Shown here: positions 24,167 to 41,261 of the stretch, in pieces
How the letters are laid out: each line of letters opens with the position of its first letter
Numbering within the stretch: the first letter of the stretch is position 1
Assembly (NCBI RefSeq): GCF_003853705.1
Contig: NZ_QTQI01000001.1
Coordinates: forward strand, 124,001 to 188,000
Length of the DNA: 64,000 bases
Source: Burkholderia sp. Bp8992
Lineage (GTDB): Bacteria; Pseudomonadota; Gammaproteobacteria; Burkholderiales; Burkholderiaceae
Reading direction: 5' to 3'
Notes under the pieces: model-generated
Databases searched by the model: none
Told to the model about the DNA's origin: nothing
What the model saw: the letters and a program-made list of their open reading frames with translations, nothing else
Position numbers and translations under genes: made by a program

Positions 24167-25999
24167 TCAGCGCGCGAAATCCGACGTGCTCTGGATGAAC
24201 GCGTTCAGCTTCGAGATGTTCACGCTGCCGAAGCCCGTCGTCGCGTCCCAGCCGGCCTTCGCCTTGTAGCCGTACGTGCCGCTGCCGTTGTTGCCGGACG
24301 TGACGTCGTGCAGCAGCGCCGCGTTGGACGGGAAGTACTTGTAGATGCTCGACGCGGGGAAGCCGAGCGCATTGTTGTTGGCCGACTGCAGCCGCGCCCA
24401 GATGCCCGTGAAGATCGGCGCGGCGAGGCTCGTGCCGCCTTCGTTGTTCAGGTAGCCCGAGCCCCACAGCGTGTCGGACGTCTGGCCGTTCACGACGAGA
24501 ATCGCGCCGGTGCGCAGGTCGGCGTCGAAGCCGACGTCGGGCAGTGCGCGCTTGGTCGATCCGGTCAGCGTCGACGACTGCCACGTCGGCGCGGCTTCGT
24601 ACTTGCTGTACCCGCCGCCCGTCGACCACACGGTGCCCGCCTGCCAGCTCGGATCGTTCCAGACGATCTCGCTGTTGTACGCGTTGGTCGACGTATTCGT
24701 GAACAGCGTCGTGCCGCCTACCGCGATCACGTACGGCGACGTGGCCGGTTCGCTCACCGTGTAGGTCGAGCGCGACGGCGTGCCGCTCGCGCATTCGTAC
24801 GCACCGTGATCGCCGGCCGAGACCGAGAAGGTCTGCCCCTGCGCGACCGCCTGCTTGAAGATGGTGTCGTCGGTTGCCTGCGAGCCGGTGCTGTTCGCGG
24901 ACGATTCGCACACGCCGAGCGAGACGTTGATCACTTTCGCGACGTTGTCGGTTACCGCCTTGTTGTATGCGGCGGTGATCGCCGTGAGCGTCATCGACGG
25001 TGCCGCGTAGAACACGACCTGCTTCACGCTGCCGCCGGCCGTGCCGACGATCGACTGGCTGTCGAGATTCCACTCGACGGTACCGGACGTATCGGTGTAC
25101 GAACTACCTGCCGGGCCCGTCTGCACGACGGTGCTGCTGATCGTGCCGAGGCCGTTGTTCGCGGCGAACGTATTGAGGTCGCTTACCGTCTGCGACAGGT
25201 CGCCTTCGGAGATGATGCCGACCGTGGTCTGCGAGGCAGTCGGCGTGCCGTCGCCGCCGTAGATCGACGAGAACTCGGTCGGGTTGTGCGGCACTGCCGA
25301 CGCGCCGGCCGGGATCGTCAGGTTGCTGGTGTTGCCTTGCGGCTTGCTGCCCGCACCGGTATGCATCAGCTCGACGTTCTGCAGCCCGAGCACCGCGCCG
25401 ACGATGCCGCCGATCGCGTTCGGCACTTGCGCGGCGTCGGTATTCGCATAGACGCTGCGGCCGTTGTGCGTGAAGCGCTTGAGCGTCGTGCGGAACGCGG
25501 ACTTGATGGTCGCCGCGGTGCCGGACGCCGATACCAGCAGGCGGTTCGGCGCGACCACGATGTTCACGAAGCCTTCCTTGCGCAGGTGCGCGACGACGGA
25601 CGCGACCTGCTGGTCGGTCGGCGCATATTGCGCGGCGAACTGCGCCGGCGTGAGGAACTGCTTGTAGTGCGGCGAGCCGGGCGTATGCAGGTCGCGCAGG
25701 TACTGGTCGAGTTGCGCCTCGTTGCGCAGGTTCAGCCCGAGCACGATGTCCACCGATTCGCCGGGCGCGAGCTCGACGGCCGCCGATGCCGCGGCCGCCG
25801 TGCTCGCGGCGGGCGCGCCGGCCGTACCGGCTTCGCTCTGCTGCACGAGCGGCAGGAACCCCTTGGTGTGGGTTTCCGTCCAGCCGGCCGCCGGCGCGGC
25901 ATGGGCGGTCGCCATGCCGAACGACGCAACGGCTGCGGCGGCGGATGCGAGCTTGACGATGCGAATGTGCTTTTGTTTCTTGTCTGCAACCTGATTCAT
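24167..25999 (-). CDS. Secreted sedolisin (peptidase family S53)
   Basis: A 610-residue prepro-serine-carboxyl peptidase. A signal peptide with A-rich core ends near AHA-AP (residue 34). The pro-kumamolisin activation domain spans about 75-210 (HYKQFLTPAQFAAQYAPT). The mature catalytic domain starts near 235. The ExxxD pair is E309 and D313 (EWNLD), the oxyanion Asp is D397 in SAGDHGA, and the nucleophile is S524 in GGTSLAAP. Sedolisins degrade proteins at acid pH outside the cell and are insensitive to pepstatin. All catalytic residues are present, so it should be active after autocleavage. It stands alone with its own terminator. Confidence 0.93.
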   Translation of the reverse strand: MNQVADKKQKHIRIVKLASAAAAVASFGMATAHAAPAAGWTETHTKGFLPLVQQSEAGTAGAPAASTAAAASAAVELAPGESVDIVLGLNLRNEAQLDQYLRDLHTPGSPHYKQFLTPAQFAAQYAPTDQQVASVVAHLRKEGFVNIVVAPNRLLVSASGTAATIKSAFRTTLKRFTHNGRSVYANTDAAQVPNAIGGIVGAVLGLQNVELMHTGAGSKPQGNTSNLTIPAGASAVPHNPTEFSSIYGGDGTPTASQTTVGIISEGDLSQTVSDLNTFAANNGLGTISSTVVQTGPAGSSYTDTSGTVEWNLDSQSIVGTAGGSVKQVVFYAAPSMTLTAITAAYNKAVTDNVAKVINVSLGVCESSANSTGSQATDDTIFKQAVAQGQTFSVSAGDHGAYECASGTPSRSTYTVSEPATSPYVIAVGGTTLFTNTSTNAYNSEIVWNDPSWQAGTVWSTGGGYSKYEAAPTWQSSTLTGSTKRALPDVGFDADLRTGAILVVNGQTSDTLWGSGYLNNEGGTSLAAPIFTGIWARLQSANNNALGFPASSIYKYFPSNAALLHDVTSGNNGSGTYGYKAKAGWDATTGFGSVNISKLNAFIQSTSDFAR

Positions 26000-26609: not shown

Positions 26610-27632
26610 CTATCGAGGAAACACTCGAATCGCCGGCGCGTGCCGCGGGATGTCGAACTCGAGAACGGCAGCGCCGCCAGGCGATGCGAGATGGCGGACC
26701 TGCCCGCCGTGCGCCTCGACGACCGCGCGCGCGACGGACAGGCCGAGACCGGTTTCGACGAAGTGTCGTGAACCTTCGTTTTCGATCCGGACGACGGCGC
26801 CCGCAGCGCGGTTTTCGACGAAAAGCCTCAGCGTGGCCGGCGCGGAATGGCGCCGCAAGTCGTCGAGCAACGCGAGAACGGCTTGCCGGATGCGCGCGCA
26901 GTCGCAGGTCACGACGGCCGCGTCGGTCGCCAGGTCGATGACGAACCCCGCTTCACGAAATGCTTCGCGAACCGAATCGACGGCGCCGGCGATTTCGCGG
27001 TCGAGCGCCGTCGGGCTCAGGTCGAGTGTCAGTGCCTCCGGCCGTTCGGCAACCTCAAGGTCGTCGACGAACCGGAACAGGTCGTCGACCTGGTGAAGCA
27101 GCGCGTCGCGCGACGAAGTGCCGTCTTCGTGGGCGAGCGCCTTGATGGCTTCGAGCCGGGTTTCGAGTTCCGCGAGCGGCGTGCGCATCGAGCGACTGTT
27201 GCTTTCGGCGACGGCTGCCGGATGGGAAGGAATCCGATATTTCAATTGATGGGTCATCGCATTGAAGTCCTCGATGAAGCGCGACAGGTCGGCCATGCAG
27301 CCGTCGCGGGAAACGACGCGCGCCGACAAGTCGCCGGCGACGATGCGGCCGGTGTGGTCGACAACCGCATCGAGCGCCGCGAGCGTGCGGCGCATCTGCC
27401 GGAACAGGTCGAACGCGGTTGCCAGCAGGCACACGAACAGCACCGTCGCGAGCACCAGGTAAGGGGATGCATCGTGGATCATCGCGTCGGCCGTTGCGTC
27501 GTGCGGCAACGCAACCGGGTGACGCAACGCGTAGAGGAGGAATGCAGCGGTGCAGGCGATCAATGCGGCGACGATGGCGCCCAGGCCGATCGCCTGCCCG
27601 ATTTGCCGGCCGGGCTTCGCCGGCAGCGTCAC
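26610..27632 (-). CDS. Degenerate sensor histidine kinase of the RND operon
   Basis: A 340-residue membrane protein with GTG start overlapping the response regulator stop (GTGA). Two membrane helices lie at about 12-36 and 58-78 with a short periplasmic loop and a HAMP-like linker. The dimerisation helix keeps RTPLAELE, but the phospho-accepting His position is Arg (R147). In the ATPase domain the N-box Asn is Asp (LLDDLRRH) and the G1 box DxGxG reads NEGSR; only the G2 box GLGLSVARAVVEAHGG is normal. It therefore looks like a pseudokinase that could act as a phosphatase, scaffold or non-signalling remnant. The frame is intact with no stop or frameshift. Confidence 0.8.
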   Translation of the reverse strand: MTLPAKPGRQIGQAIGLGAIVAALIACTAAFLLYALRHPVALPHDATADAMIHDASPYLVLATVLFVCLLATAFDLFRQMRRTLAALDAVVDHTGRIVAGDLSARVVSRDGCMADLSRFIEDFNAMTHQLKYRIPSHPAAVAESNSRSMRTPLAELETRLEAIKALAHEDGTSSRDALLHQVDDLFRFVDDLEVAERPEALTLDLSPTALDREIAGAVDSVREAFREAGFVIDLATDAAVVTCDCARIRQAVLALLDDLRRHSAPATLRLFVENRAAGAVVRIENEGSRHFVETGLGLSVARAVVEAHGGQVRHLASPGGAAVLEFDIPRHAPAIRVFPR

Positions 27633-28321
27633 TGCGCGCCCCGCAGCCGGTAGCCGACACCGCGCATCACTTCGGGCATGCCCGGTGCACCGGCCTGTTC
27701 GAGCTTCTTGCGCAGCCTGCAGATGTGGCTGTCGACCGTGCGCTCCAGCGCGCTCACGTCGGCCATGCACGCATCGAGCAGCTCGCCGCGCGTGAACACG
27801 CGGCTCGGCGATCGCGCCATGTGTGCGAGCAGCCGGAATTCGGTCAGCGTCAGCGTGATCGGGATCTCGGCAGAATCCGTCCGCACGCGGGCCAGATAGC
27901 TGTCGGTGTCGATCTCCAGGTCGCCGACGCGCAGCATGCGCGTGGCCGGCGGCGCGGCCGAGCGGCGCAGGATCGCGCGCAGCCGCGCGACGACCTCGGC
28001 CGGGTTGAACGGCTTGACGATGTAGTCGTCCGCGCCGGCGTGCAGCGCCTGCAGCCGGTCGAGGTCGCGGTCGAATGCCGTGAGGACGACGACGGGCGTA
28101 TTGCCGCGCCGCCGCAGCTCGGTGAGCACCTCCCAGCCGTTCTTCTGCGGCATCTTCACGTCGAGCAGGATCAGGTCGGGCTTCAGGTGCGGCTGCACGT
28201 CGAGCACCGCTTGCCCGTCGGCGACGCGGTAGGTGCGAAAGCCGTCGTGCGTCAGGTACGCGTCGAGGATGTCCGAGATGTCGGGCTCGTCTTCTGCAAT
28301 CAGTATCAGGGAATGGGTCAT
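27629..28321 (-). CDS. OmpR/PhoB-family response regulator
   Basis: A 230-residue two-domain regulator. The receiver (1-120) has the acidic pocket EDE, the phospho-accepting Asp in LILLDVKMP (about residue 54), the Thr of LTAF and the Lys of VKPF, all intact. The C-terminal winged helix includes TLTEFRLLAHMA and VDSHICRLRKKLE. It lies 100 bases after the outer-membrane channel gene and overlaps the sensor by 4 bases. It is likely to control the RND pump operon, in the manner of AdeR or BaeR. Because its partner kinase lacks the His, phosphate may come from another kinase or a small donor. Confidence 0.92.
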   Translation of the reverse strand: MTHSLILIAEDEPDISDILDAYLTHDGFRTYRVADGQAVLDVQPHLKPDLILLDVKMPQKNGWEVLTELRRRGNTPVVVLTAFDRDLDRLQALHAGADDYIVKPFNPAEVVARLRAILRRSAAPPATRMLRVGDLEIDTDSYLARVRTDSAEIPITLTLTEFRLLAHMARSPSRVFTRGELLDACMADVSALERTVDSHICRLRKKLEQAGAPGMPEVMRGVGYRLRGAQ

Positions 28322-28421: not shown

Positions 28422-29852
28422 TCAGTTCTGCACCTCGCTCTGCGACGGCGCGACGTCCTTGTCGGTCAGGCCGCCACCGAGCGCCTTGTACAGCGCAACG
28501 GCGTTGCCGAGCTCGCTGCGGCGCAGGTCGAGCAGCGCCTGCCGCGCCGAGTAGAGCTGCCGCTGCGAATCGAGCAGTTCCAGCCGCCCCTCGACGCCCG
28601 CGCGATAACGCAGGTTCGACAGGTCGGTGCGGCGTTCGGCCGAGCCGACCACGCGCGTCTGCGCTTCGATCTGGCGGCCGAAGGTTTCGCGCCCGGCGAG
28701 ACCGTCGGCCACTTCGCGAAACGCGGTCTGGATCGAGCGTTCGTATTCGACGACCGCGCTGGACTTGCGCACTTCGGCGAGTCGCAGCTCGGAGCGCAGC
28801 CGGCCGCCCTGGAAGATCGGCACCGTGACCTGCGGCGCGAAGCTCCACGTGCGCTGGCCGCCGTCGAACAGGCTGCCCATCGCCGGGCTGAGGAAACCGA
28901 TCGACGACGTCAGCGACAGGCGCGGGAAGAACGCGGCGCGCGCGGCGCCGATATCGGCATTCGCGGCGACGAGGTTCTGTTCGGCCTGCCGGATATCCGG
29001 GCGACGGAACAGCAGTTCGGAGGGCAGGCCGGCCGGCAGTTGCGTCATCACCGGTTGCTGCTGAAGCGGCAGCGGCTCGGGCAGATCCTTCGGCAGCTCG
29101 GTGCCGACCAGCAGGCGCAACGCATTGCGTGCCTGCTCGACGGCGCGCGTGCGCGCTTCGAGATCGGCCGTGGCGCTTGCGACCTGGCCTTCGGCTTGTG
29201 CGATGTCGACGCCGCTCGCCTGATGCGCATCCTTCAGGCGGCGTGCGAGATCGAGCGACTGCTGCCAGTCGGCGAGTGTGCGCTCGGACAACTGACGCTG
29301 CTCCTGCGCGAGGCGTTCCGCGAAGTACGCGTCCGCGACGCCGCCGACCAGCGAGATCTGCACCGCGCGGCGGCCGTGATCGGTCGCGAGGTAGCGCGCG
29401 AACGCCGCATCCGACATCGATTTCACGCGGCCGAACAGGTCGATCTCGAACGCGCTGATGCCGAGGTTCACGCCGTACTGGCTCTGCGTCGTGCCGAACA
29501 GCGGCGGGCTCGACTGCGTGTCGTCCGACGTGCGCTGGCGCGTGAAGTTCGCGCCGGCGCCGATCGACGGCAGGCGCGCGGAACGCTGGATGCCGTACTG
29601 CGCTTCGGCGGCCTCGACGTTCAGCGCCGCGAGGCGCAGGTCGCGGTTGTTTTCGAGCGCGAGCTCGATCAGGCGCTGCAGGCGGCGATCGCCGAACATC
29701 GTGCGCCAGCCGAGATCGGCCGCGTTGGCCTTGAGGTCGGCGGCCGCGGCGGCCGTGTAGGCCGTCGGCACCGGCATCGAGGGCTTGACCAGCGTCGGCG
29801 CGAGCGAGCAGGCCGACAGGGCGAGGACGAGGGGAAGAATAAGCAATCGCAT
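28422..29852 (-). CDS. RND outer-membrane channel lipoprotein (OprM/NodT family)
   Basis: A 476-residue TolC-like outer-membrane factor. The leader MRLLILPLVLALSAC gives a lipobox Cys at 15. Two repeats of the long helical hairpin are visible: GLRLAALNVEAAEAQYG-type near residue 75 and the C-terminal YRAGVEGRLELLDSQRQLYSARQ. It forms the exit duct for the pump encoded 4 bases upstream. It is the third gene of the leftward adaptor-pump-channel operon. Confidence 0.93.
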   Translation of the reverse strand: MRLLILPLVLALSACSLAPTLVKPSMPVPTAYTAAAAADLKANAADLGWRTMFGDRRLQRLIELALENNRDLRLAALNVEAAEAQYGIQRSARLPSIGAGANFTRQRTSDDTQSSPPLFGTTQSQYGVNLGISAFEIDLFGRVKSMSDAAFARYLATDHGRRAVQISLVGGVADAYFAERLAQEQRQLSERTLADWQQSLDLARRLKDAHQASGVDIAQAEGQVASATADLEARTRAVEQARNALRLLVGTELPKDLPEPLPLQQQPVMTQLPAGLPSELLFRRPDIRQAEQNLVAANADIGAARAAFFPRLSLTSSIGFLSPAMGSLFDGGQRTWSFAPQVTVPIFQGGRLRSELRLAEVRKSSAVVEYERSIQTAFREVADGLAGRETFGRQIEAQTRVVGSAERRTDLSNLRYRAGVEGRLELLDSQRQLYSARQALLDLRRSELGNAVALYKALGGGLTDKDVAPSQSEVQN

Positions 29853-29856
29853 GGCA

Positions 29857-32800
29857 TCAACCTTCCTGTCCGTGAGTCGGGGCGGCCGGCTGCTTGCGGG
29901 AAGCCCGCCATGCGCCGATGCGCTCCTGGATGCTCATCACGAACACAAAGAAAACGGGGACGAAGAAAATGGCCAGTACCGTGGCGGTCACCATGCCGCC
30001 GAACACGCCGGTACCGATCGCGTGCTGCGTTTCGGCGCTGGCGCCGGTCGCGATCATCAGCGGCACGACACCGAGGCCGAACGCGAGCGAGGTCATCAGG
30101 ATCGGACGCAGGCGCAGCTTCGACGCCTGCACGGCCGCTTCAATGAGTCCTTTGCCTTCCTCGCGCAACTGCTTCGCGAATTCGACGATCAGGATCGCGT
30201 TCTTCGCGGACAAGCCGATCACGGTGATCATCCCGACCTTGAAGAACACGTCGTTCGGCATGCCGCGCAGCAGCACCGCGCCGATCGCGCCGATCAGGCC
30301 GAGCGGCACCACCAGCATCACCGACAGCGGGATCGACCAGCTTTCGTACAGCGCGGCGAGCACCAGGAACACGACGATCATCGACAGCGCCATCAGCATC
30401 GGCGCCTGCGACGCCGACTGGCGTTCCTGCAGCGACTGGCCGGTCCACTCGACCGCGAAGCCCGGCGGCAGCTGCGCGGCAAGCCGCTCCATCTCGGCCA
30501 TGGCCGCGCCGCTCGACTGGCCCGGCGCGGCGGTGCCCGAGATGCGCGCGGACGGGTAGCCCTTGAAACGCACCATCTGCAGCGGCGTCTCGGCCCATAC
30601 CGGGCGAACCACTTCGGACATCGGCACCATGCCGCCGGCCGCGTTGCGCACGTACAGCTTCATCACGTTGTCGATCTGCATGCGTGCCGGCGCATCGGCC
30701 TGGATGATCACCTGCTGCATGCGGCCCGCGTTCGGGAAGTCGTTCACGTAGGTCGAACCCATCGCGGTCGACAGCGTGTCGCTGAGCGTCGTGAACGACA
30801 CGCCGAGCGCCTGCGCCTTCGCGCGATCGATCTCGAGGCGGATGCTCGTGCCGGCGGGCAGGCTGTCCGGGTACACGCCGGTCACGACCTTGCTTTGCGC
30901 GGCGAGTTCGAGCAGCTTCGCTTCCGCTGCCTTGAGCGCCGCGGTGCCCTGGTTGGCGCGGTCTTCCAGGCGCATCGAGAAGCCCGAGCTGTTGCCGAGT
31001 TCGTCGATGGCCGGCGGCAGCAGGCTCATCACCGTGCCTTCGGTCACGCCGGCCATCGCCTGCTGCGCGAGCATGCCTTCCTCGATCGTCGACGAGCCGC
31101 CGCGGTTCTTCCAGTCCTTCATCACGGACCAGTTGATCGCCGCGTTCGAACCCTGGCCCGAGAAGCCGTAGCCGATCACGGAAATGCTCGACTGGATTGC
31201 CGGACGCGAAGCAAGATGCTTCTCCAGCGTCTTGACCACGTCATGCGTGCGCTCGGCGGTAGCGTCTGCGGGCAGCAGAAAGCTGGTGATGAAGTAGCCC
31301 TGGTCTTCGTCCGGCAGGAACGACGACGGCAGGCTGCGGAAGCCGAACACCAGTGCGCCCGAGATCGCGACGAACACCAGCATCACGCGGCCCGTGCGGC
31401 CGACCAGGCGGCCGACGCGCGTCTCGTACCATTTCGTCAGGATATCGAAGCGGCGGTTGAACCAGCCGAAGAAGCCGCGTTTTTCGTGGTGGCCCGGTTC
31501 GAGCGGCTCGAGCATCGTCGCGCACAGGGCCGGCGTGAGCGTCAGTGCCAGCAGCGCCGAGAACAGGATCGACACGGCCATCGACATCGTGAACTGCTTG
31601 TAGATCACGCCGACCGAGCCGCTCGCCATCGCCATCGGCAGGAACACCGCGGTCAGCACCAGCGTGACGCCGATGATCGCGCCGGTGATCTCCTTCATCG
31701 CCTTCGACGTCGCGTCCTTCGGCGACAGTCCTTCCTCGGCCATCAGGCGCTCGACGTTCTCGACGACGACGATTGCATCATCGACGATGATGCCGATCGC
31801 GAGCACCATGCCGAACATCGTCAGCACGTTGATCGAGAAGCCGGTCAGCAGCATCACCGTGAACGTGCCGAGCATCGCGACCGGCGCGACGATGGCCGGG
31901 ATCAGCGTGTAGCGCACGTTCTGCAGGAACAGGTACATCACGAGGAACACGAGCACCATCGCTTCGAGCAGCGTGTGCAGCACCTTCTCGATCGAGATCT
32001 TCACGAACGGCGACGTGTCGAGCGGAATCGAGTAGGTCATGCCGGACGGCATCGACTTGCTCAGTTCGGCCATGCGCGTACGAATCGCATCGGCGGTCTT
32101 CACCGCGTTCGCGCCCGGTGCGAGCTGCACGCCGGCGAGGGTGGCAGGCTTGTTGTTCTCGCGGCTCACGAACGTGTAGTTCTGCGAGCCGAGTTCGACG
32201 CGCGCGACGTCGCCGAGCACGACCTTCGAGCCGTCCGCGTTCGCGCGCAGCACGACCTTCGCGAACTCTTCCGGCGTCGTGAGCTGGCCCTGCGCGGTGA
32301 GCGGCACGGTCACGCGCTGGCCCGCCAGCGCGGGCAGCGCACCGAGGCTGCCCGGTGCGATCTGCACGTTCTGCTGGCCGATCGCGGTGGTCAGGTCGCT
32401 CATCGACAGGCCGAAATTGATCAGCTTCTGCGGATCGACCCAGATGCGCATCGCGCGTTCGGAGCCGAACTGCAGCACGCGGCCGACGCCGTCGATTCGC
32501 CGCAGTTCCTCGGAGACGCTGCGCGCCATGTAGTCGGCGAGCGCGCCTTCGTCGAAGCGGCCGTTGTCGGAACGCAGGCCGACGATCATCAGGAAGCCGG
32601 ACGATGCGGATTCGACGATCAGCCCGTTCTGGCGCACGGCTGCGGGCAGGCGCGGCTCGACCGACTTGATCTTGTTCTGCACGTCGACCTGCGCCATCTC
32701 CGGATTGGTGCCGGGCTTGAACGTCACGGTGATCTGTGCGGCGCCGGACGTATCGGCCGACGATTCGAAGGACAGCAGGTTCTTGACGCCGGACAGTTCG

Positions 32801-33000
32801 CGCTCGATGAGGCTCAGCACGCCGTCGTTCATCGTCTGCGGCGTGGCGCCCGGATAGGTCGCGGTGATCGTGACGGACGGCGGTGCGACCGACGGGTAGC
32901 GCGCGACCGGCAGTTGCGGGATCGCGATCAGCCCCGTCAGGATGATGAAGAGCGCGATCACCCACGCAAACACCGGGCGTCGGATAAAGAATTCAGCCAT
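29857..33000 (-). CDS. RND efflux pump inner-membrane transporter (HAE1/AcrB type)
   Basis: A 1047-residue proton-driven drug transporter. It begins MAEFFIRRPVFAWVIALFI as in AcrB/MexB, with twelve membrane helices and two large periplasmic loops. The proton relay is present as the paired Asp in IIVDDAIVVVENV (about 405) and the Lys in GLSAKNAILIVEFAK (about 940). Family members expel antibiotics, detergents and dyes. Its two-component regulator in the same operon is the less common arrangement. From memory the location matches RND-8 of B. cenocepacia, whose substrates are poorly defined. Confidence 0.95.
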   Translation of the reverse strand: MAEFFIRRPVFAWVIALFIILTGLIAIPQLPVARYPSVAPPSVTITATYPGATPQTMNDGVLSLIERELSGVKNLLSFESSADTSGAAQITVTFKPGTNPEMAQVDVQNKIKSVEPRLPAAVRQNGLIVESASSGFLMIVGLRSDNGRFDEGALADYMARSVSEELRRIDGVGRVLQFGSERAMRIWVDPQKLINFGLSMSDLTTAIGQQNVQIAPGSLGALPALAGQRVTVPLTAQGQLTTPEEFAKVVLRANADGSKVVLGDVARVELGSQNYTFVSRENNKPATLAGVQLAPGANAVKTADAIRTRMAELSKSMPSGMTYSIPLDTSPFVKISIEKVLHTLLEAMVLVFLVMYLFLQNVRYTLIPAIVAPVAMLGTFTVMLLTGFSINVLTMFGMVLAIGIIVDDAIVVVENVERLMAEEGLSPKDATSKAMKEITGAIIGVTLVLTAVFLPMAMASGSVGVIYKQFTMSMAVSILFSALLALTLTPALCATMLEPLEPGHHEKRGFFGWFNRRFDILTKWYETRVGRLVGRTGRVMLVFVAISGALVFGFRSLPSSFLPDEDQGYFITSFLLPADATAERTHDVVKTLEKHLASRPAIQSSISVIGYGFSGQGSNAAINWSVMKDWKNRGGSSTIEEGMLAQQAMAGVTEGTVMSLLPPAIDELGNSSGFSMRLEDRANQGTAALKAAEAKLLELAAQSKVVTGVYPDSLPAGTSIRLEIDRAKAQALGVSFTTLSDTLSTAMGSTYVNDFPNAGRMQQVIIQADAPARMQIDNVMKLYVRNAAGGMVPMSEVVRPVWAETPLQMVRFKGYPSARISGTAAPGQSSGAAMAEMERLAAQLPPGFAVEWTGQSLQERQSASQAPMLMALSMIVVFLVLAALYESWSIPLSVMLVVPLGLIGAIGAVLLRGMPNDVFFKVGMITVIGLSAKNAILIVEFAKQLREEGKGLIEAAVQASKLRLRPILMTSLAFGLGVVPLMIATGASAETQHAIGTGVFGGMVTATVLAIFFVPVFFVFVMSIQERIGAWRASRKQPAAPTHGQEG

Positions 33001-33020: not shown

Positions 33021-34181
33021 TCAGTGCGCGGACGCGGTGGCGGCCGCGTCAGGCGACTTCCAGTCGGTCGCGGCGGCCGGCGCGCCGTCGACCAGGCGTT
33101 CCATCCCTTCGACGACGACCTTCTGGCCGGCCTGCAGGCCCGACTTGATGCGATAGCTGCGGTTCGTCAGTTCGCCGACCTCGACAGCCTTCAGATGCGC
33201 GGTGCCCTTCGCGTCGAGCACCCACACCTGCGGCTTGCCGCCGGCGCGCACGACGGCCTGTTGCGGCACCGTCACCGCGTTGGCGTAGTGCGCGCGCGGA
33301 ATGCGGGCACGCACATACATGCCCGGCAGCAACTGTCGCTTCGGGTTGTCGACCAGCACGCGCAGCAGCACGTCGCCGGTGCCCGGATCGACGTTGACGC
33401 CCGAGAACAGCATGCGGCCCTTGACGTCGTAACGCGTGTCGTCGTCGCGCAGCACGTCGACCGGCAGGCCGTTGCTGTCCGACGCTTGCGGCTGCGAGGC
33501 GAGCGCGCCGCGCAGCGCTTCGAGCGAAGCAGCCGGCTGGCGCACGTCCACGTAGACCTGGTCGATCTGCTGGATGCGCGCCATCGGCTGGCTGTCGCCG
33601 CTCGACACCAGCGCGCCTTCGGTCACGAGCGCCTGGTCGATGCGGCCGGCGATCGGCGCTTCAACGGTCGCGAATTTCAGGTCGAGCTGGCGGCGCGCGA
33701 GCGTCGCGCGGGCCTGCGCGACATCGGCGGCGGCCTGGTCGCGTTGCGACACCGCGTCGTCGTACACCTGGCGGCTGATCGCATCGGCTTCGACGAGCGG
33801 CTTGAAGCGGGCCGTCTGCACCTTCGCGCGTTCGAGCGCGGCCTGCGCACGCTGCAGCGATGCGGCGGCGGTGTCCATCTCGGCCTTGAACGGTGCTGGA
33901 TTGATCTGGAACAGCGGCTGGCCCATGCGCACTTCGGTGCCTTGCTCGAACAGCCGGCGCTGCACGATGCCGCTCACCTGCGGCCGGATCTCGGCCACCC
34001 GCACGGCCGCGACGCGGCCCGGCAGGTCCTCGGTGACGTCGAGGCGCGTGGCGGCCACGGTCATGGCCGCGACCGGCGTGGCCGGTGCGGCGGCCTGCTG
34101 TTCGGCGGGCCGGCAACCCGCCAGCATTGCCGCCACCAGCGCGCATACCGCGCTGTAGCAGCATCGTTTCTGATTCTTCAT
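33021..34181 (-). CDS. RND efflux periplasmic adaptor (MexA/AcrA family)
   Basis: A 386-residue membrane fusion protein with a lipobox signal (MLAGC at about residues 19-23). The lipoyl/barrel-sandwich halves surround a helical hairpin: PQVSGIVQRRLFEQGTEV, then helices from about 90 to 160, then APIAGRIDQALVTEGALV. The beta-barrel and membrane-proximal domains follow. It joins the pump to the outer-membrane channel. It is the first gene of the operon and lies 20 bases before the pump gene. A 20-base inverted repeat sits just upstream of its start. Confidence 0.93.
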   Translation of the reverse strand: MKNQKRCCYSAVCALVAAMLAGCRPAEQQAAAPATPVAAMTVAATRLDVTEDLPGRVAAVRVAEIRPQVSGIVQRRLFEQGTEVRMGQPLFQINPAPFKAEMDTAAASLQRAQAALERAKVQTARFKPLVEADAISRQVYDDAVSQRDQAAADVAQARATLARRQLDLKFATVEAPIAGRIDQALVTEGALVSSGDSQPMARIQQIDQVYVDVRQPAASLEALRGALASQPQASDSNGLPVDVLRDDDTRYDVKGRMLFSGVNVDPGTGDVLLRVLVDNPKRQLLPGMYVRARIPRAHYANAVTVPQQAVVRAGGKPQVWVLDAKGTAHLKAVEVGELTNRSYRIKSGLQAGQKVVVEGMERLVDGAPAAATDWKSPDAAATASAH

Positions 34182-34581
34182 AGCGACTCCAGGAAACGCA
34201 GGCAGCCCACTGCCTGCTTTGACGGGCTGGAGTTTGCTTGGGTTAGTTGGGGGCTTTTATGCGGAAAGATGGAGATTCGATGGAGCCCGCGAAAGGAAGC
34301 GAAAAGCGGGGCGGCGGGTGTCGCAATGGTCGGACGAATGGGCGTGGCGCCGTGTCATGCGTGCGGTGTCGTCGGCATTCCGCCGGTCGGTCCGGTCGAC
34401 GAGGATCGACCGCGACGTGATCGATGACGACCCGCTCGGCAACGAAGTGCCGGCGACGACGGGGGCCGAGGGGGGGCTGCTGGGCGCGGTACGGAATCGG
34501 GCATCCCGATCTGGAGCGGATCAGCTTCTGCCGGCTGCTCGACGCGTTCGCATCGTTCGGACGGTTGATCCGTAGCGCGTG
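34182..34581. other. Intergenic region upstream of the RND operon
   Basis: Separates the RND operon start from the ankyrin gene, both leftward. It must contain the pump promoter. A rightward open frame at 34219-34575 (118 codons) has no homology-like pattern and no ribosome site, so it is not called. No clear regulator-binding direct repeat was identified beyond the inverted repeat near 34198. Confidence 0.5.
34198..34217. promoter_or_regulatory. Inverted repeat in the RND operon leader
   Basis: GCAGGCAG and CTGCCTGC separated by four bases, 17 bases upstream of the adaptor start codon. It could be an operator or a leader hairpin that affects translation; no T run follows, so termination is unlikely. 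Confidence 0.4.
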
Positions 34582-35193
34582 CTACTGCGTGGCTCCGGCT
34601 TGCCGCAGCGCATCCGCAGCGTAGGTGTTGTCGTGTGTCAGTGCGAGCTGAAGCAGCGACTGCCCGCGCCGATCGACATGGTTCGGATTCGCGCCGTGCG
34701 CGACGAGCAGCGGAATCAGTTCGAAGCGATTGAACAGCGTCGCGAACCCCAGCGCGGTTTCGCCGGCGCCGTTCGTCTGGTCGATCGGGCAGCGCGTGTC
34801 GATCAGGCGGCGTGCGATGTCGGGTTCGTTCTTGAAGAGCGCACCCATCAGCGCCGTGTTGCCGTGGCGGTCGCCAACACATGCATCGGCGCCGGCCGAC
34901 AACAGGTAGTCGAGCGCGGCAGGCTGGCCGTCGTAGGACGCGAGAATCACGGCCGTGTAGCCGTGGCTGTCGGCGGCGTCGACGGGATACCCGGCGTCAT
35001 GCAGTGCGCGCAGGATGTCGACGCGGCCGACGCGTGCGGCGTCGAACCAGTCGCCGTCATAGCGGCGCAGTGCGGCAGGATCGGCCTTGCCGTAAGCAGG
35101 CTGGTCGGGCAGGTGCGCGCAGCCGGCGAGCGCGGCCAGCGCCACGGTCATGGCGGCCGCGCGGATCGTGTGCGTGAAGCGTTCGGGGCGCAT
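34582..35193 (-). CDS. Ankyrin-repeat lipoprotein downstream of catalase
   Basis: A 203-residue protein with a lipobox leader (LAALAGC, Cys near 24) and four ankyrin repeats (DWFDAARVGRVDILRALHDAGYPVD; GYTAVILASYDGQPAALDYLLSAGAD; GNTALMGALFKNEPDIARRLID; GETALGFATLFNRFELIPLLVAHGAN). Ankyrin proteins placed after katB are known in Pseudomonas (ankB), where they support full catalase activity in the periplasm. It lies 86 bases downstream of katB on the same strand, so co-transcription is likely. The start at 35193 gives a clean lipoprotein signal. Confidence 0.85.
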   Translation of the reverse strand: MRPERFTHTIRAAAMTVALAALAGCAHLPDQPAYGKADPAALRRYDGDWFDAARVGRVDILRALHDAGYPVDAADSHGYTAVILASYDGQPAALDYLLSAGADACVGDRHGNTALMGALFKNEPDIARRLIDTRCPIDQTNGAGETALGFATLFNRFELIPLLVAHGANPNHVDRRGQSLLQLALTHDNTYAADALRQAGATQ

Positions 35194-35279
35194 GGGGATG
35201 TCCTGATGAAAATGTCGGGCCGACGTGCGTGGCACCACTACGCACACTACGCACGTCGGCAGCGACCGATGTCGCGGGA

Positions 35280-36815
35280 TCAGTTCTCGCTCAGCTTCGC
35301 CGCGAGCGACTGCACTTGCTGTACGTTCGCGTGAACGGCCTGCGCGAGACGCGTGCCGTAGTCGGCATCGGCCTTGTAGAAGTACGACAGCATCGCGTAC
35401 TGGTTTTGCGCGTTCTTCACCTGGCCGAGATCGCCGGACAGTGCGGTGACGAGGTCGTCCTTGTCCTGCTGCGACAGGCTGCGGTAGTACTCGCCGGCCT
35501 GTCGGAACAGCAGCTTCTTGCGGATCGCTTCCTGTTGCGTCGTGCCGTTGAGCGCCATGCGCACGGACTTGTACTGCGGATCCTGCGCGAGCTCGTGCTG
35601 CGTCGACGGCTCGTAGTTCACCTCGCCCTTGCGGTCGCCCGCGTTCATCTTGCCGTCCTGGTTGTTGTTGACCACCGGCACGACAGGGCGGTTGATCGGC
35701 AGGTCCATGTAGTTCGCGCCGAGGCGGTACATCTGCGTGTCGGCATACGCGAACAGGCGATCCTGCAGCATCCGGTCTTCGGACGGCTCGATGCCCGGCA
35801 CGAGCCGCGACGGCGCGAACGCCGACTCCTCGGTCGACTGGAAGTAGTTGTCGGGCACGCGATTGAGCGTCATCGTGCCGATCTTGCGTTCAGGTACGCC
35901 GGTCCACACCTTCGTATCGTCCAGCGCGTCGAAGTCGAAGCGGTTCAGGTCCTTGGGCGTGAGCACCTGCACGTACAGATCCCATTTCGGGAAATCGCCT
36001 TGCTTCAGTGCGCCGTACAGGTCGTTCGTCATCAGGTTCCAGTCGCGGCCGATCGACGCGGCGATCTCTTGCGGACGCAGGCCGTGCACGCCTTGCTGGC
36101 TCTTCCAGTGGAACTTCACGTAGTGCACGTCGCCTTGTGCATTGACGAACTTGAACGCGTGCACCGCGAAGCCGTCCATGTGGCGATACGAATCGGGCAT
36201 GCCCTCGTTCGTGTACAGCCTCGTCAGCATGTGGGTCGCTTCGGGCGTGTGCGCGAAGAAGTCGAATGCGAGGTTCGGGTCCTGCACGCCGGTCACGGCG
36301 CTCGGCTTGTTCGCGTGGACGAAGTCGGGGAACTTGATGCCGTCGCGAATGAAGAACACGGGCCAGTTGATGCCGACCATGTCCCAGTTGCCCTGCTGCG
36401 TATAGAACTTCACCGCGAAGCCGCGCGGATCGCGCGCCTGTTCGGGCGAGCCGCGATAGCCCATCACGGTCGAGAAGCGCACGAACACCGGCGTGCGGGT
36501 GCCCGGCGTGAAGACTTTCGCTTTCGTCAGGTCGGAGATGTCGGCGCTCGGCACGAACTCGCCGAATGCACCGGTGCCGCGCGCATGCACGACGCGTTCC
36601 GGAATGCGCTCGCGATCGAAGCGCTGCAGTTTCTCGATGAGCGCGGAGTCCTGCAGCAGCACGGGGCCGGCGGGGCCGGCCGTCTGCGAATTCTGGTTGT
36701 CGCCGACGGGCGCGCCCGTGTCGCGCGTGAGTTCGGCGGCGTACGGGGAAGCGGAGAAGGCAACGCAGATCGCGGCGACTGCGTGCCGCAGCACGCGATG
36801 GGAGGATGAGGACAT
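35280..36815 (-). CDS. katB: Periplasmic monofunctional catalase
   Basis: A 511-residue haem catalase with an N-terminal signal peptide ending near YAAE (residue 28), so it is probably exported. The distal His lies in RVVHARGTGAFGEF, the Asn in GNWDMVGINWPVFF, and the proximal Tyr in RLFAYADTQMYRLG. It converts hydrogen peroxide to water and oxygen. The small-subunit length and exported form match KatB of Pseudomonas and Burkholderia. An OxyR-like tetrad array lies about 75-110 bases upstream. Confidence 0.94.
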   Translation of the reverse strand: MSSSSHRVLRHAVAAICVAFSASPYAAELTRDTGAPVGDNQNSQTAGPAGPVLLQDSALIEKLQRFDRERIPERVVHARGTGAFGEFVPSADISDLTKAKVFTPGTRTPVFVRFSTVMGYRGSPEQARDPRGFAVKFYTQQGNWDMVGINWPVFFIRDGIKFPDFVHANKPSAVTGVQDPNLAFDFFAHTPEATHMLTRLYTNEGMPDSYRHMDGFAVHAFKFVNAQGDVHYVKFHWKSQQGVHGLRPQEIAASIGRDWNLMTNDLYGALKQGDFPKWDLYVQVLTPKDLNRFDFDALDDTKVWTGVPERKIGTMTLNRVPDNYFQSTEESAFAPSRLVPGIEPSEDRMLQDRLFAYADTQMYRLGANYMDLPINRPVVPVVNNNQDGKMNAGDRKGEVNYEPSTQHELAQDPQYKSVRMALNGTTQQEAIRKKLLFRQAGEYYRSLSQQDKDDLVTALSGDLGQVKNAQNQYAMLSYFYKADADYGTRLAQAVHANVQQVQSLAAKLSEN

Positions 36816-37041: not shown

Positions 37042-38532
37042 TTACCCGGCGTTCGCCTGCCAGCCGAGCCCGAGGCTTTTCTGCACGGACACGTAGTCCT
37101 TGATCAGCTCGGCTTGCCCGGCGATCACGTTCTGTTGCGCGGACAGCGCTTCGCGTTGCGTGTCGAGCAGGTCGATCATCGACGCGACGCCCGCGCGATA
37201 GCGCTCGTCCATCAGCGAGCGCGCATGCACGGCCGACGTCTGCACCTTCGTCAACGCGACGACGTGCTCGCGCTGGTGCCCGTAACGCTGCAATGCGGTG
37301 TTGGCATCCTGTAATGCACCGAGCACGGCCTTCTGGTAATTCGCTTCCGCTTCGTCACGCGACGCTTCGGCCGCGCGTACCGCGCCGCGCGTGCGCCCGA
37401 AGTCGAGGATGTTCCATTGCAGGTACGGTGCACCGACCCACGTGAAATTCTGCTTGCGGAACAGGTGGCCGGGGTCCGTCGCGCTGAAGCCGAGATCGCC
37501 GAGCAGCGTCACCTTCGGGAAATAGTCGGCCACGTGCTCGCCGATCTGCGCGTTGCTCGATGCGAGCCGGCGCTCGGCCGCGCGAATGTCGGGGCGCTGC
37601 TTCAGCAGCGCGGCCGGATCGCCGATCGCGACGTCGCCGGGCAACGTCGGCAGCGGGGCGTCCGCGGTCGACAATGCGGCATCCAGCGCGCCCGGCGCAC
37701 GCCCCGTCAGGATCGCGAGCCGGTCGAGCGATTCCGTCACCTGCGCGTCGAGCGGGATCAGCGACGCCCGCGTGGTCTCGACCTGCGTCGTCAGGCGCTC
37801 GATGTCCACATCGGCCGCGACGCCGCGTGCGCGGCGCTGTTGCGTGAGTTCGAGCATCTTCTGCTGCAACCCGGCCGTGCGCTGCGACAGCGCGAGCCGT
37901 TGCTGCTGGTCGCGCAGGTCGACATAGGCGTTCGCGACTTCGGCGGCGATCGACACCTGCGTATCGGCGAGATCGGCGTCGACGGCTTCGGCCTGTGCGG
38001 ATGCCGCTTCGACTGCACGACGCGTGCCGCCGAACAGGTCGATTTCCCAGGTCGCGTCGAAACCGGCCGAATAGAGTTGCAGCGGTCCCGAGCCGCCCAG
38101 CGACGGCGACGTGCCGCCCGACTGGTTCGAGCCGTTCGACGGCAGCAGCGAACCGAGCGCGCTGACGTCCGGTTCGCGCATGCGGATGGCCGCGACGGTG
38201 GCCGACGCTTTCGGCAACTGCGCCGCGCGCTGTTGCGAGAGCTGCGCGCGCGACGCGCGCAAGCGCGCCTGCGCCGCGTGAAGGTCGGGGTTGTACACGA
38301 GTGCGGCGGTGATCAGGTCGTCGAGCTGGCGATCGTGCAGTGCGAGCCACCACGCGCTCGGTGCCGGCGCGGTGGTGTCGATGCCGGAGGCCGGCGCGCG
38401 CACGAAGGTCGGCGCATCGGGTGCGGCGGGCGCGCCGCGATAGTCGGGGCCGACCGTGCAGCCGGCGAGCAGGCACGCGACTGCACACAGCGTGAGCGCA
38501 GGGCGGCGGGGCAGGGAGAAGGGTTTCATCAC
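37042..38532 (-). CDS. Outer-membrane efflux lipoprotein (NodT family) of the EmrAB-type pump
   Basis: A 496-residue TolC-like channel with lipobox LLAGC (Cys near 25). It shows the duplicated outer-membrane factor repeat: LITAALVYNPDLHAAQARLRAS near 75 and the second copy near 300 (IRAAERRLASSNAQIGEHV), ending with YRAGVASMIDLLDTQREAL. It is the last gene of the leftward operon HlyD-MFS-channel and lies 10 bases after the MFS gene. It should supply the outer-membrane exit for that pump. Confidence 0.92.
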   Translation of the reverse strand: MMKPFSLPRRPALTLCAVACLLAGCTVGPDYRGAPAAPDAPTFVRAPASGIDTTAPAPSAWWLALHDRQLDDLITAALVYNPDLHAAQARLRASRAQLSQQRAAQLPKASATVAAIRMREPDVSALGSLLPSNGSNQSGGTSPSLGGSGPLQLYSAGFDATWEIDLFGGTRRAVEAASAQAEAVDADLADTQVSIAAEVANAYVDLRDQQQRLALSQRTAGLQQKMLELTQQRRARGVAADVDIERLTTQVETTRASLIPLDAQVTESLDRLAILTGRAPGALDAALSTADAPLPTLPGDVAIGDPAALLKQRPDIRAAERRLASSNAQIGEHVADYFPKVTLLGDLGFSATDPGHLFRKQNFTWVGAPYLQWNILDFGRTRGAVRAAEASRDEAEANYQKAVLGALQDANTALQRYGHQREHVVALTKVQTSAVHARSLMDERYRAGVASMIDLLDTQREALSAQQNVIAGQAELIKDYVSVQKSLGLGWQANAG

Positions 38533-38542
38533 GTAAGACGGT

Positions 38543-40129
38543 TCAATGGCCGGACGACATCGGCTGCGGGCCGCGCGGCGTTCTCAGCATCAGGGCGAGC
38601 GGTACGCAGGCGAGCAGCGCGAGGCCCAGCAGATAAAAGGTTTCGGAGTAGGTCATCACGACGGCCTGGATCTGGATCTGCTGCGCCAGCTGCCCGAGCG
38701 CGCGCATGTTCGAATACGCGAGGTCGCCGGTGTGTGAAAACCAGTTGGCCGCATAGGCCGACAGCCGGTCCTGCCCGATCAGCGAGTTCGCGGTCACCGA
38801 TTCGCGCAGCGCGGCCGTATGGAAGGTCGTGCGCCGGTCGATCACGGTGCCGATGATCGCGAGCCCGATCGAGCCGCCGAGGTTACGCGCCATGTTGTAG
38901 AGCCCGGCCGCATCGCCCGAGTCTTCACGCGCGACGGCCGCCATCGACGCCTGGTTGAGCGGCATCATCGCGAGCATCTGCGCAACGCCGCGGATCAGTT
39001 GCGACCACACGAAGTCATGGCCGACGCTCTGCGCGGTCAGGCCGATGTCGAGCATGCAGCTCAGGCAGAACAGCAGCAGCCCCGAGATCACGAGGATGCG
39101 GAAATCGACCTTGCCGAGCAGGCGCGGCAGGATCGGCATCACGAGGAAGGCCGGCAGACCCGACAACAGCATGATCGCGCCGGCCTGTTCCGCGTTGTAG
39201 CCGGCGACGATCGCGAGGAACTGCGGCAGCAGGTAGGACACGCCGTACAGCCCCGCGCCGACCGCGGACACGATCACGATCACGCTCGCATAGCGCGGGT
39301 TGCGCATCAGCGACAGCCGCATGATCGGCCGCTTCGCGAAGCGCTGCGACAGCGCGATCAGGACCATCCCGGCAAACGACACGATGCTCAGCGTGACGAT
39401 CATCTGCGATTCGAACCAGCGCTCGCGCTGGCCTTCCTCGAGCACGACGGTGAGCGAGCTCAGGCCGATCGCGAGGCCGAAGATGCCGAGCCAGTCCGCG
39501 TTGAAGAACGCGTGCCATTGAGGGCGGTCCGACGGCAGCCCGAACACCAGCAGCGCCATCAGCAGCAGGCACACGGGCAGGTTCAGGAAGAAGCACCAGC
39601 TCCAGTTCACGTTCTCCGCGAGCCAGCCGCCGAGCACGGGGCCGAACAGCGGCCCGAGCAGCACGATCAGGCCGAACAGCGTCATCCCGACCGGCAGTTG
39701 CGACAGCGGCAACCGCGTGCGGATGATCGTCTGCGCGGTCGGGATCAACGCGCCGCCCGTGAAGCCCTGGCCGATCCGGCCGGCAATCATCATCGGCAGC
39801 GAATGCGACCAGCCGCACATCATCGAGAATGCGATGAACAGCGCGGAGTTCGTCAGCAGGAAGTTGCGCAGCCCGAACACGCGCGTGAGCCAGGCGGCGA
39901 GCGGGATCATCACGATTTCCGACATCAGGTAGCCGGTCGAGATCCACGTGCCTTCGGTGCCGGTCGCGCCGATTTCGCCCTGGATCTGCGGCAGTGCGGA
40001 GTTCGTGATCGAGATGTCGAGCGTCGCCATCAGCGCGCCGAGCGCGCCGGCCGCGACCGCGATCCAGTCGGTGACGCTCGCGCGGCCCTCGTGCGGCGGC
40101 ACGGGCATCGTGGCGGACGTATCAGCCAT
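38543..40129 (-). CDS. DHA2-family MFS multidrug transporter (EmrB/QacA type)
   Basis: A 528-residue protein with fourteen predicted membrane segments. It has the DHA2 motifs LDISITNSALPQIQGEIGAT (helix 1), GRIGQGFTGGALIPTAQTII and PLFGPVLGGWLAENVNWSWCFFLN (motif C, the antiporter motif, with WRW/F-type ending). It exports hydrophobic drugs or fatty-acid-like compounds using the proton gradient. Its start overlaps the end of the HlyD gene by 8 bases, so the two are translationally coupled. Confidence 0.94.
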   Translation of the reverse strand: MADTSATMPVPPHEGRASVTDWIAVAAGALGALMATLDISITNSALPQIQGEIGATGTEGTWISTGYLMSEIVMIPLAAWLTRVFGLRNFLLTNSALFIAFSMMCGWSHSLPMMIAGRIGQGFTGGALIPTAQTIIRTRLPLSQLPVGMTLFGLIVLLGPLFGPVLGGWLAENVNWSWCFFLNLPVCLLLMALLVFGLPSDRPQWHAFFNADWLGIFGLAIGLSSLTVVLEEGQRERWFESQMIVTLSIVSFAGMVLIALSQRFAKRPIMRLSLMRNPRYASVIVIVSAVGAGLYGVSYLLPQFLAIVAGYNAEQAGAIMLLSGLPAFLVMPILPRLLGKVDFRILVISGLLLFCLSCMLDIGLTAQSVGHDFVWSQLIRGVAQMLAMMPLNQASMAAVAREDSGDAAGLYNMARNLGGSIGLAIIGTVIDRRTTFHTAALRESVTANSLIGQDRLSAYAANWFSHTGDLAYSNMRALGQLAQQIQIQAVVMTYSETFYLLGLALLACVPLALMLRTPRGPQPMSSGH

Positions 40130-41246
40130 GGCGTTTCTCGTCGCGGGCCGAACGCGTGTCGACGTCGACCGTCACCGACAGCCCCGGCAGCAGCATGCGT
40201 TGTGCGCGCGCGTTCGAATCGAGGCGGATGCGCACGGGCACGCGCTGGACGATCTTCGTGAAGTTGCCGGTGGCGTTTTCGGGCGGCAGCAGCGCGAACT
40301 GCGCGCCGGTGCCGGGCGCGAAGCTGTCGACGACGCCGGTCAGCGCGCCGTCCGGCAGCGCATCGACATGCAGCTCGACGGGCTGGCCGATGCGCATGTT
40401 GCCGATCTGCGTTTCCTTGAAGTTCGCGACGAGATAGATCGAGTCGACCGGCACGACGGTCAGCAGCCGCGTGCCGGGCTGCACGTACTGGCCGACGCGC
40501 ACCGTGCGATCGCCGACGCGGCCGGCGAGCGTGCTGCGCACGATCGTGTTGTCGAGATCGAGCTGCGATTGCGCGGCGCTGGCCTGGGCGGCCTCGAGCT
40601 GCGCGCGTGCCTGCTGGAGCTGCGCGGTGAACGACGCGATCTGCGTGCGCGCGGCGGCGATCGACGCGTTGTTCGCGGCCAGCGTCGCGGCTGCCTGGTC
40701 GCGCGTGCTCTTCAGGTCGGCCACACGTTCGTGCGTTTCCGCACCGGTCGCCGCGAGCGGTGCATAGCGCGCGTACTCGTCGCTGGCGTGCTGCGCGTTG
40801 ATGCGCGACACCTTCGCCTGTGCATCGGCCTGTTCCAGATTCGCGTGCTGCTGGCTGATGTCGGCTTCGGCGCGCGCGATATCCGCACGGCGGGCGTCGA
40901 CGGTCGCCAGGGCCTGCGCGAGCGCGACCTGGTACTGGCGGACATCGAGCCGCACGAGCGGATCGCCGGCCTTCACGGCCTGGTTGTCGTGCACGTAGAC
41001 GTCGGTCACGTAGCCGGCGACCTTCGGCGCGGCGGCCATGCTGTCCGCCTGCAGGTACGCATCGTTGGTGCTTTCGATGAAGCGGCCGACCGTCCACCAG
41101 CGGCCGAGCCAGACGGCGCCGCCGATGGCCGCGAGCACGGCGACGGCAAGCAGGATGCGCCGCTTCGATCCGCCGCGTCCGTTACGCGGTGTTGTTCCGT
41201 TTTCCTGACGATCTACTTTCTGTGTCGGGTCTTGCAGCGTCGACAT
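40122..41246 (-). CDS. HlyD/EmrA-family membrane fusion protein
   Basis: A 374-residue adaptor with one N-terminal membrane helix (about 29-48) and a large periplasmic part. The lipoyl halves YVTDVYVHDNQAVKAGDPL and NTIVRSTLAGRVGDRTVRVGQYV flank a long coiled-coil hairpin (about 105-215) rich in Ala, Gln and Glu. It links the DHA2 transporter to the outer-membrane channel. It is the first gene of the operon, divergent from the TetR gene, with a palindrome between them. Confidence 0.93.
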   Translation of the reverse strand: MSTLQDPTQKVDRQENGTTPRNGRGGSKRRILLAVAVLAAIGGAVWLGRWWTVGRFIESTNDAYLQADSMAAAPKVAGYVTDVYVHDNQAVKAGDPLVRLDVRQYQVALAQALATVDARRADIARAEADISQQHANLEQADAQAKVSRINAQHASDEYARYAPLAATGAETHERVADLKSTRDQAAATLAANNASIAAARTQIASFTAQLQQARAQLEAAQASAAQSQLDLDNTIVRSTLAGRVGDRTVRVGQYVQPGTRLLTVVPVDSIYLVANFKETQIGNMRIGQPVELHVDALPDGALTGVVDSFAPGTGAQFALLPPENATGNFTKIVQRVPVRIRLDSNARAQRMLLPGLSVTVDVDTRSARDEKRHG

Positions 41247-41261
41247 ACGGGATCCAATTTA

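What the first reader, a model, noticed from the sequence alone, without database searches (positions are those of the whole stretch)
26610..27632. Pseudo-histidine kinase encoded with an intact response regulator in an RND operon
The predicted sensor keeps RTPL and the G2 box but has Arg in place of the phospho-accepting His, Asp for the N-box Asn, and NEGSR for DxGxG. The frame is clean and translationally coupled to the regulator by a GTGA overlap, so it has not simply decayed. It may act as a phosphatase, a ligand-sensing scaffold, or leave the regulator to another kinase. This would be an unusual control circuit for a drug pump.
Basis: partly seen in the sequence, partly recalled or inferred. 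Interest (0 to 1): 0.72.

Follow-up and report, generated by a model that had tools for sequence, protein, structure and literature searches.

The report
Efflux sensor kinase losing its kinase
In many Burkholderia the sensor that should switch on a drug pump's regulator has lost its catalytic parts, in some species down to an 85-residue membrane stub, while the regulator stays intact and is probably driven by a sister kinase.

Summary
Window 27632..26610(-) encodes a 340-residue AdeS-type sensor (HK1), GTGA-coupled to an intact AdeR-type regulator (RR1), with Arg for the phospho-His, Asp for the N-box Asn and a ruined G1 box. The loss is not recent: 38 of 47 RR1 loci fetched from the genus (35 of 44 genomes) lack a canonical partner kinase. 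HK1 occurs as full-length pseudokinase, as a form of about 207 residues without ATPase domain, and, in 17 loci, as an ~85-residue two-helix stub. Canonical kinases in the other 9 loci and in 7 of 7 loci from other genera show the ancestral state. Reduced forms are relaxed but still under purifying selection (omega 0.30-0.47; canonical 0.08; simulated neutral 0.50-1.17). RR1 keeps its phospho-Asp in 47 of 48. An intact paralogous kinase, HK2, is full-length in 33 of the 35 genomes; in 9 an orphan HK2-type kinase precedes the pump operon. The one genome without HK2 is the one whose RR1 lost its Asp. Best reading: HK2 replaced HK1, which persists as a membrane remnant of unproven function. New variant of a known kind.

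The parts
26610..27632 (-). HK1: full-length AdeS-type pseudo-histidine kinase, 340 aa, GTG start
   Evidence: best NCBIfam AdeS E 8e-29 (below its cut-off); AdeS 7cch is the best PDB match by profile and by fold
27396..27605 (-). two predicted transmembrane helices (residues about 10-79), the part that survives in the stub clade
   Evidence: hydropathy and HMM/hhalign match of the stubs to the canonical N-terminus
27192..27194 (-). Arg147 codon at the phospho-acceptor His position
26859..26861 (-). Asp258 codon at the N-box Asn position
26766..26780 (-). remnant of G1 box (NEGSR); 22 residues of G1/F box/ATP lid missing here
   Evidence: alignment
27629..28321 (-). RR1: AdeR-type OmpR/PhoB response regulator, phosphorylation site intact
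27629..27632 (-). GTGA stop-start overlap between RR1 and HK1
28422..29852 (-). outer membrane factor of the pump
29857..33000 (-). RND permease
33021..34181 (-). periplasmic adaptor of the pump
34268..34285 (-). tandem box CTCCATC-N4-CTCCATC (11-bp period), probable regulator site, 86 bp before the adaptor start
   Evidence: binding not tested

Best explanation
HK1 is a catalytically dead AdeS-type sensor, one stage in a loss of the kinase that once partnered RR1, spread over much of the genus. RR1 still controls the pump through the tandem promoter box and still needs phosphate, which now most likely comes from the paralogous AdeS-type kinase HK2, whose docking helix resembles that of canonical HK1. 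HK1 is kept, under weak purifying selection, as a non-catalytic membrane protein; its two-helix membrane part is all that the stub clade retains. Shown by sequence: the dead motifs, the reduction series, the selection values, HK2's presence in relatives. Inferred: phosphotransfer from HK2 to RR1, RR1 binding to the box, and any function of the remnant. Whether the window's own genome has HK2 was not tested (assembly not held); its nearest held relatives G001 and G057 have it.
For: Dead motifs and shared 22-residue deletion. Canonical HK1 beside RR1 in 9 of 47 genus loci and in 7 of 7 loci fetched from other genera. RR1 Asp kept in 47 of 48, Thr 47 of 48, Lys 48 of 48; RR1 omega 0.06-0.09 beside HK1 omega 0.30-0.47 in the reduced sets, HK1 0.079 in the canonical set. 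HK2 full-length with all motifs in 33 of 35 reduced genomes; G060 shows only N-terminal halves running into contig ends, G007 none. HK2 omega 0.098 and 0.125. In 9 stub genomes an intact HK2-type kinase without a regulator of its own lies upstream, same strand, of box-MFP-RND-OMF-RR1-stub; G031 keeps RR2-HK2 in that place. G007, without HK2, has RR1 Asp54 to Gly. Conversely HK2 is split into two frames in G049, which keeps canonical HK1. The first 24 residues of the docking domain average 78% identity between canonical HK1 and HK2. Box 85-86 bp before the pump in 35 of 39 regions, window included; one per genome in 9 of 10 genomes.
Against: No phosphotransfer or binding data. The G007 coincidence is one case (about 1 in 35 by chance), and G007 also lacks the box. 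In the window's group HK2 lies elsewhere with its own RR2, so adjacency supports the swap only in the stub clade; 7 stub loci have no HK2-type gene within the 4-6 kb searched upstream. In the full-length set the membrane part shows no third-position excess of differences (0.129, 0.117, 0.129 per codon), as near-neutral change would give. Three group-1 loci have lost the reading frame.
Confidence: 0.55

Rival explanations
1. HK1 is simply a decaying pseudogene; open frames persist because the genome is GC-rich and the decay is recent.
For: Frame lost in L037/L032 (B. seminalis), no start at the overlap in L048, 35 codons in L052; omega about 4-6 times canonical; flat codon-position differences in the membrane part of the full-length set.
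Against: Observed omega lies below every neutral simulation in each set (0.344 vs minimum 0.50; 0.472 vs 0.55; 0.302 vs 0.50; 0.312 vs 0.73); 17 of 17 stub loci hold an open stub (one, L068, from a later start) where simulations give on average 7-11 of 17 with a stop, least 2. For the 207-residue set the bootstrap range 0.35-0.61 reaches the edge of the null. Selection on older branches could lower omega.
Confidence: 0.25
2. DivL- or RetS-like role: the pseudokinase binds RR1~P or HK2 through its DHp domain and modulates it (scaffold, phosphatase, heterodimer).
For: HK fold predicted for the cytoplasmic part, matching AdeS, DivL and RetS structures; Thr of the HExxT motif kept.
Against: DHp omega 0.415 (full-length) and 0.68 (truncated) is not the lowest of the parts; DHp is absent from the 17 stubs; the window's 64-residue DHp block is only 27-33% identical to canonical HK1.
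Confidence: 0.1
3. RR1 no longer depends on any kinase: it works unphosphorylated or on acetyl phosphate.
For: No active kinase beside RR1 in the window's group; the G007 regulator lacks the Asp altogether.
Against: Asp, Thr and Lys are conserved in 47, 47 and 48 of 48, and the docking helix alpha1 is little changed; acetyl phosphate alone would not be expected to preserve the docking face (inference).
Confidence: 0.15

Closest known systems
AdeRS-AdeABC of Acinetobacter baumannii (abstract, outline and passages of PMC3498117; passages of PMC5947904)
   Same: Best family and structure match (AdeS 7cch; NCBIfam AdeS/AdeR); AdeS has two membrane segments at 9-36 and 58-85; AdeR binds a direct repeat before the pump
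   Different: AdeS is an active kinase. The truncated AdeS described there keeps the transmitter and loses the membrane part; here the reverse is kept. Neither HK1 nor RR1 reaches the NCBIfam AdeS/AdeR cut-off
DivL pseudo-histidine kinase of Caulobacter (passages of PMC5361649)
   Same: Substituted His; HK fold kept; the paper states that about 1% of sequenced kinases have a substituted His, Arg among them
   Different: DivL binds DivK~P and controls CckA; here the docking domain is weakly constrained and is gone from the stub loci
RcsD (passages of preprint PMC13317618)
   Same: Membrane protein with an inactive kinase module beside an active paralogous kinase
   Different: RcsD carries an Hpt domain; none was found here
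RetS (structure hit only; action on GacS recalled, and the title of hit 7n0e)
   Same: Kinase paralogue that acts on another kinase
   Different: No evidence of heterodimer here
Intramembrane-sensing kinases and small pump-bound proteins such as AcrZ (recalled)
   Same: Short periplasmic loop; small membrane protein in a pump operon
   Different: The stub derives from a kinase; no interaction shown

Membership tests
Active HisKA/HATPase_c histidine kinase (AdeS) | phospho-acceptor His in HExxT/N | tested here: not met
   Arg147
Active HisKA/HATPase_c histidine kinase (AdeS) | N-box Asn, G1 DxGxG, F box and ATP lid | tested here: not met
   Asp258; 22-residue deletion
Active HisKA/HATPase_c histidine kinase (AdeS) | AdeS equivalog score at or above 500 bits | tested here: not met
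   100.8 bits, yet the best family hit
Pseudo-histidine kinase | HK fold with lost catalytic residues | tested here: met
   fold is predicted, not solved
Pseudo-histidine kinase (DivL type) | binds a regulator and controls another kinase | not testable with these tools
   needs binding assays
OmpR/PhoB response regulator (AdeR-like) | receiver with Asp, Thr, Lys and winged-helix domain | tested here: met
   Response_reg and Trans_reg_C; residues
OmpR/PhoB response regulator (AdeR-like) | tandem repeat site before the target operon | tested here: met
   box at 34268-34285, 0.01 expected in the window; binding itself not tested
Decayed pseudogene | broken frame or neutral omega | tested here: inconclusive
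   Open frame; omega of the 4 full-length forms 0.344, below all 60 neutral simulations, but flat position pattern in the membrane part and no within-species data
RND-associated small protein (AcrZ-like) | physical contact with the permease | not testable with these tools
   none

The most novel reading that the evidence does not exclude
A sensor kinase has been pared down to a stand-alone two-helix membrane protein of about 85 residues that is still made from the end of the regulator gene and still functions, either by pairing with the membrane helices of the replacement kinase HK2 or by contacting the RND pump: a kinase-less sensor born from a kinase, of which the window protein is an earlier, full-length stage, within a two-component system that swapped its kinase.
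Probability: 0.3. Interest if true: 0.8.

Novelty: new variant of a known kind. Interest (0 to 1): 0.6.

Why it matters
Pseudo-histidine kinases and orphan regulators are known, but a graded series within one genus, from active kinase through dead kinase to a selected membrane stub, with an orphan paralogous kinase at the other end of the same pump operon in 9 genomes, makes kinase replacement in two-component systems directly testable. It also means that control of such a pump cannot be read from the gene annotated beside the regulator.

Tried and rejected
Recent point mutation of the window strain: rejected, the losses are shared. Annotation or frame error: rejected, three relatives align end to end. 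Chance homology of the stubs: rejected, all 17 hit the canonical profile (E 3e-16 to 2e-9 in a set of 32 sequences) and hhalign gives 97.8% probability. Stubs match no Pfam or NCBIfam family above cut-off (2 of the 17 given). The first codon-model run failed to parse omega, redone. Gap counting by pairwise DNA alignment was noisy for L042, L044 and L050-L054, so no in-frame against shifted statistic is claimed. A pattern for HK2 missed HELRTPV (corrected), the G1 box of G046 (read) and the N box of L131 (read). The 'next ORF' listing took wrong frames for the gene behind the second box; one search corrected it. Paper searches listed no title or abstract describing this series; most subscription papers are not held. 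Which numbered B. cenocepacia RND system this pump is was not settled (passages of PMC3079749).

Full report
What is there. On the minus strand the window holds, in order, the adaptor (34181-33021), RND permease (33000-29857), outer membrane factor (29852-28422), response regulator RR1 (28321-27629) and sensor HK1 (27632-26610), with a GTGA overlap between the last two. HK1's best named relative is AdeS (NCBIfam E 8e-29, 100.8 bits against a cut-off of 500) and RR1's is AdeR (E 3e-74, 249.6 bits against 340). AdeS 7cch is the best solved structure by sequence profile (E 2e-59) and by fold of the predicted model (E 6e-12; mean pLDDT 68, catalytic-domain blocks 74-90).

The dead sensor. Against canonical relatives (6 of the 9 canonical sequences shown there, the other three read) HK1 has Arg at the His, Asp at the N-box Asn, and 22 residues missing from the end of G1 through the F box and ATP lid. 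The three other full-length relatives (L035, L036, L038) share the Asp and the 22-residue gap; L035 and L036 share the Arg, while L038 still has the His. So in that line the ATPase domain was ruined before the His went (inference).

A series of reductions. The regulator was searched in 65 genomes of the genus. I took the 47 places with at least 66% identity (the paralogue RR2 begins at 61%) in 44 genomes and fetched all of them. What follows RR1: a canonical kinase in 9 loci; a full-length pseudokinase in 3 (plus the window); one 231-residue form lacking the middle (L034); 11 forms of 199-212 residues that end about where the ATPase domain should begin; three of 112-114 residues; three broken or nearly gone (L037, L048, L052); and 17 two-helix stubs of 84-88 residues. 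Of the stubs, 13 start inside the regulator's stop (GTGA or ATGA), three start right behind it, and L068 starts later. All 17 match the canonical kinase's N-terminal membrane part. A stub profile over the same 65 genomes finds these 17 and one more, solo copy in G028. A tree of the 48 regulators puts the 17 stub loci on one side of a branch (97/83), the 9 canonical loci likewise (90/80) and the window's group of 22 on another (100/100); truncated forms need 4 changes, so the ATPase domain was probably lost more than once, though recombination is not excluded. The tree is rooted at its midpoint only. In a sample of 299 genomes of the family, 33 had a close regulator; 7 of these were from three other genera, and 7 of 7 sit beside a kinase with the normal His, Asn and G1 motifs, one (L127) in the same pump operon. 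So the canonical state is the likely ancestor.

Is it only decay? Codon models give HK1 omega 0.344 (4 full-length, window included), 0.472 (8 of the 11 forms near 207 residues), 0.302 (the other 3, a separate clade) and 0.312 (17 stubs), against 0.079 for the 9 canonical kinases; RR1 has 0.06-0.09 in the same sets. The reduced forms are clearly relaxed. To calibrate neutrality I simulated neutral change on each tree; simulated omega was 0.50-0.89, 0.55-1.05, 0.50-1.17 and 0.73-1.08 (60, 57, 57 and 59 finished runs), and on average 7-11 of 17 simulated stubs carried a stop (least 2), against none observed. Bootstrap ranges are 0.25-0.46, 0.35-0.61, 0.19-0.42 and 0.25-0.42. By region, the set of 8 is most constrained in HAMP and membrane parts (0.33, 0.41) and least in DHp (0.68); in the full-length set membrane, HAMP, DHp and CA give 0.36, 0.47, 0.42 and 0.26, and its membrane part shows no third-position excess of raw differences. 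The stub result is the firm one; for the window protein constraint is moderate, lies partly in the remains of the catalytic domain, and could be older than the present.

Who drives the regulator? RR1 keeps Asp54 in 47 of 48 (not L074), Thr81 in 47 of 48 (not L048) and Lys103 in 48 of 48. A paralogous pair, RR2-HK2, exists too; HK2 is AdeS-like (E 6e-89, still below the cut-off). Of the 35 genomes without canonical HK1, 33 hold full-length HK2 with the His, N, G1 and G2 motifs, G060 shows only N-terminal halves that run into contig ends, and G007 has none. HK2 is strongly constrained (omega 0.098 in 21 genomes, 0.125 in 12). G007's regulator is the only one without Asp54. In the opposite direction, G049 keeps canonical HK1 and has HK2 split into two frames. 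In 9 stub genomes an intact HK2-type kinase without a regulator of its own lies upstream of the pump operon on the same strand; in G058 this is seen on a separate contig whose end reaches the adaptor. G031 shows the fuller arrangement RR2-HK2-box-MFP-RND-OMF-RR1-stub; the other seven stub loci have no HK2-type gene in the 4-6 kb searched. This reads as a partner swap: HK1 and RR2 discarded, HK2 and RR1 kept. In the window's own group HK2 still sits with RR2 elsewhere in the genome, so there the swap is an inference by analogy.

The promoter. A tandem box CTCCATC-N4-CTCCATC lies 86 bp before the adaptor start in the window and at 85-86 bp in 35 of the 39 upstream regions that could be read (window included); exceptions are L074 (G007), L076 (one mismatch), L077 and L078. 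It occurs once in the window (0.01 expected). In 10 genomes chosen from the 65, with one mismatch allowed, it occurs once in 9 and twice in G031, and the reversed control never. 11 of the 35 stand-alone RR2 regions have a weaker TCCATC-N5-TCCATC repeat close to the gene, and the recognition helices are alike, so RR2 might also act on the pump. In 9 stub loci a second box lies downstream; in the 5 where I read the following gene it is one and the same protein, which Pfam names PqiA for the one submitted. This hints at envelope stress as the input.

Compared with what is known. Pseudo-histidine kinases are a known class (DivL; about 1% of kinases by PMC5361649, passages read), as are membrane proteins with an inactive kinase module (RcsD, PMC13317618, passages) and a truncated AdeS (PMC3498117, abstract, outline, passages). 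That truncated AdeS keeps the transmitter without the membrane part; the Burkholderia stubs are its mirror image. HK1 belongs with AdeS by descent, fails the catalytic tests, and is best called a pseudo-AdeS. My paper searches, listed in Tried and rejected, showed no report of this series.

Limits. The window's own genome was not available; all statements on HK2 rest on relatives. No biochemistry was done. Organism names are known only for Burkholderia sp. BCC1644, B. seminalis and Burkholderia sp. Nafp2/4-1b.

Noticed in passing
L121 (G028:C8) 5928-6510: A solo stub copy behind the promoter box and a C-terminal fragment of the regulator, with no pump gene found: the stub frame is kept though regulator and pump are gone.
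   Followed up: partly
L059, L060, L062, L063, L066, L067, L068, L069, L076 downstream of the stub: A second tandem box (CTCCATC-N4-CTCCATC), in the 5 loci read in front of one and the same PqiA-like protein, so the regulon may include envelope lipid transport.
   Followed up: partly
L074 (G007): Regulator phospho-Asp, promoter box and HK2 are all missing in one genome while the stub stays open.
   Followed up: partly
L048 (G059:C2): Regulator and box kept but most of the pump and the sensor start are lost; this genome has a second, stub-type operon.
   Followed up: no
L064 and L070: RND permease 96-97% identical to the window's while outer membrane factor and regulator are only about 85% and 75%: probable recombination of the permease.
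   Followed up: no
G049:C178 2786-3882: HK2 split into two frames in a genome that keeps canonical HK1: reciprocal loss, or an assembly error.
   Followed up: no
window 24167-25999: Kumamolisin-type protease downstream on the same strand; the end of HK1 and the AT-rich gap before it looked alike in relatives even where the sensor is cut down.
   Followed up: no
window 34582-36815: Catalase gene followed by an ankyrin-repeat protein gene, directly upstream of the pump operon on the same strand.
   Followed up: no
window 37042-42174: What reads like a second efflux operon (MFS transporter, adaptor, outer membrane factor) with a divergent TetR-like regulator; not checked against family models.
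   Followed up: no
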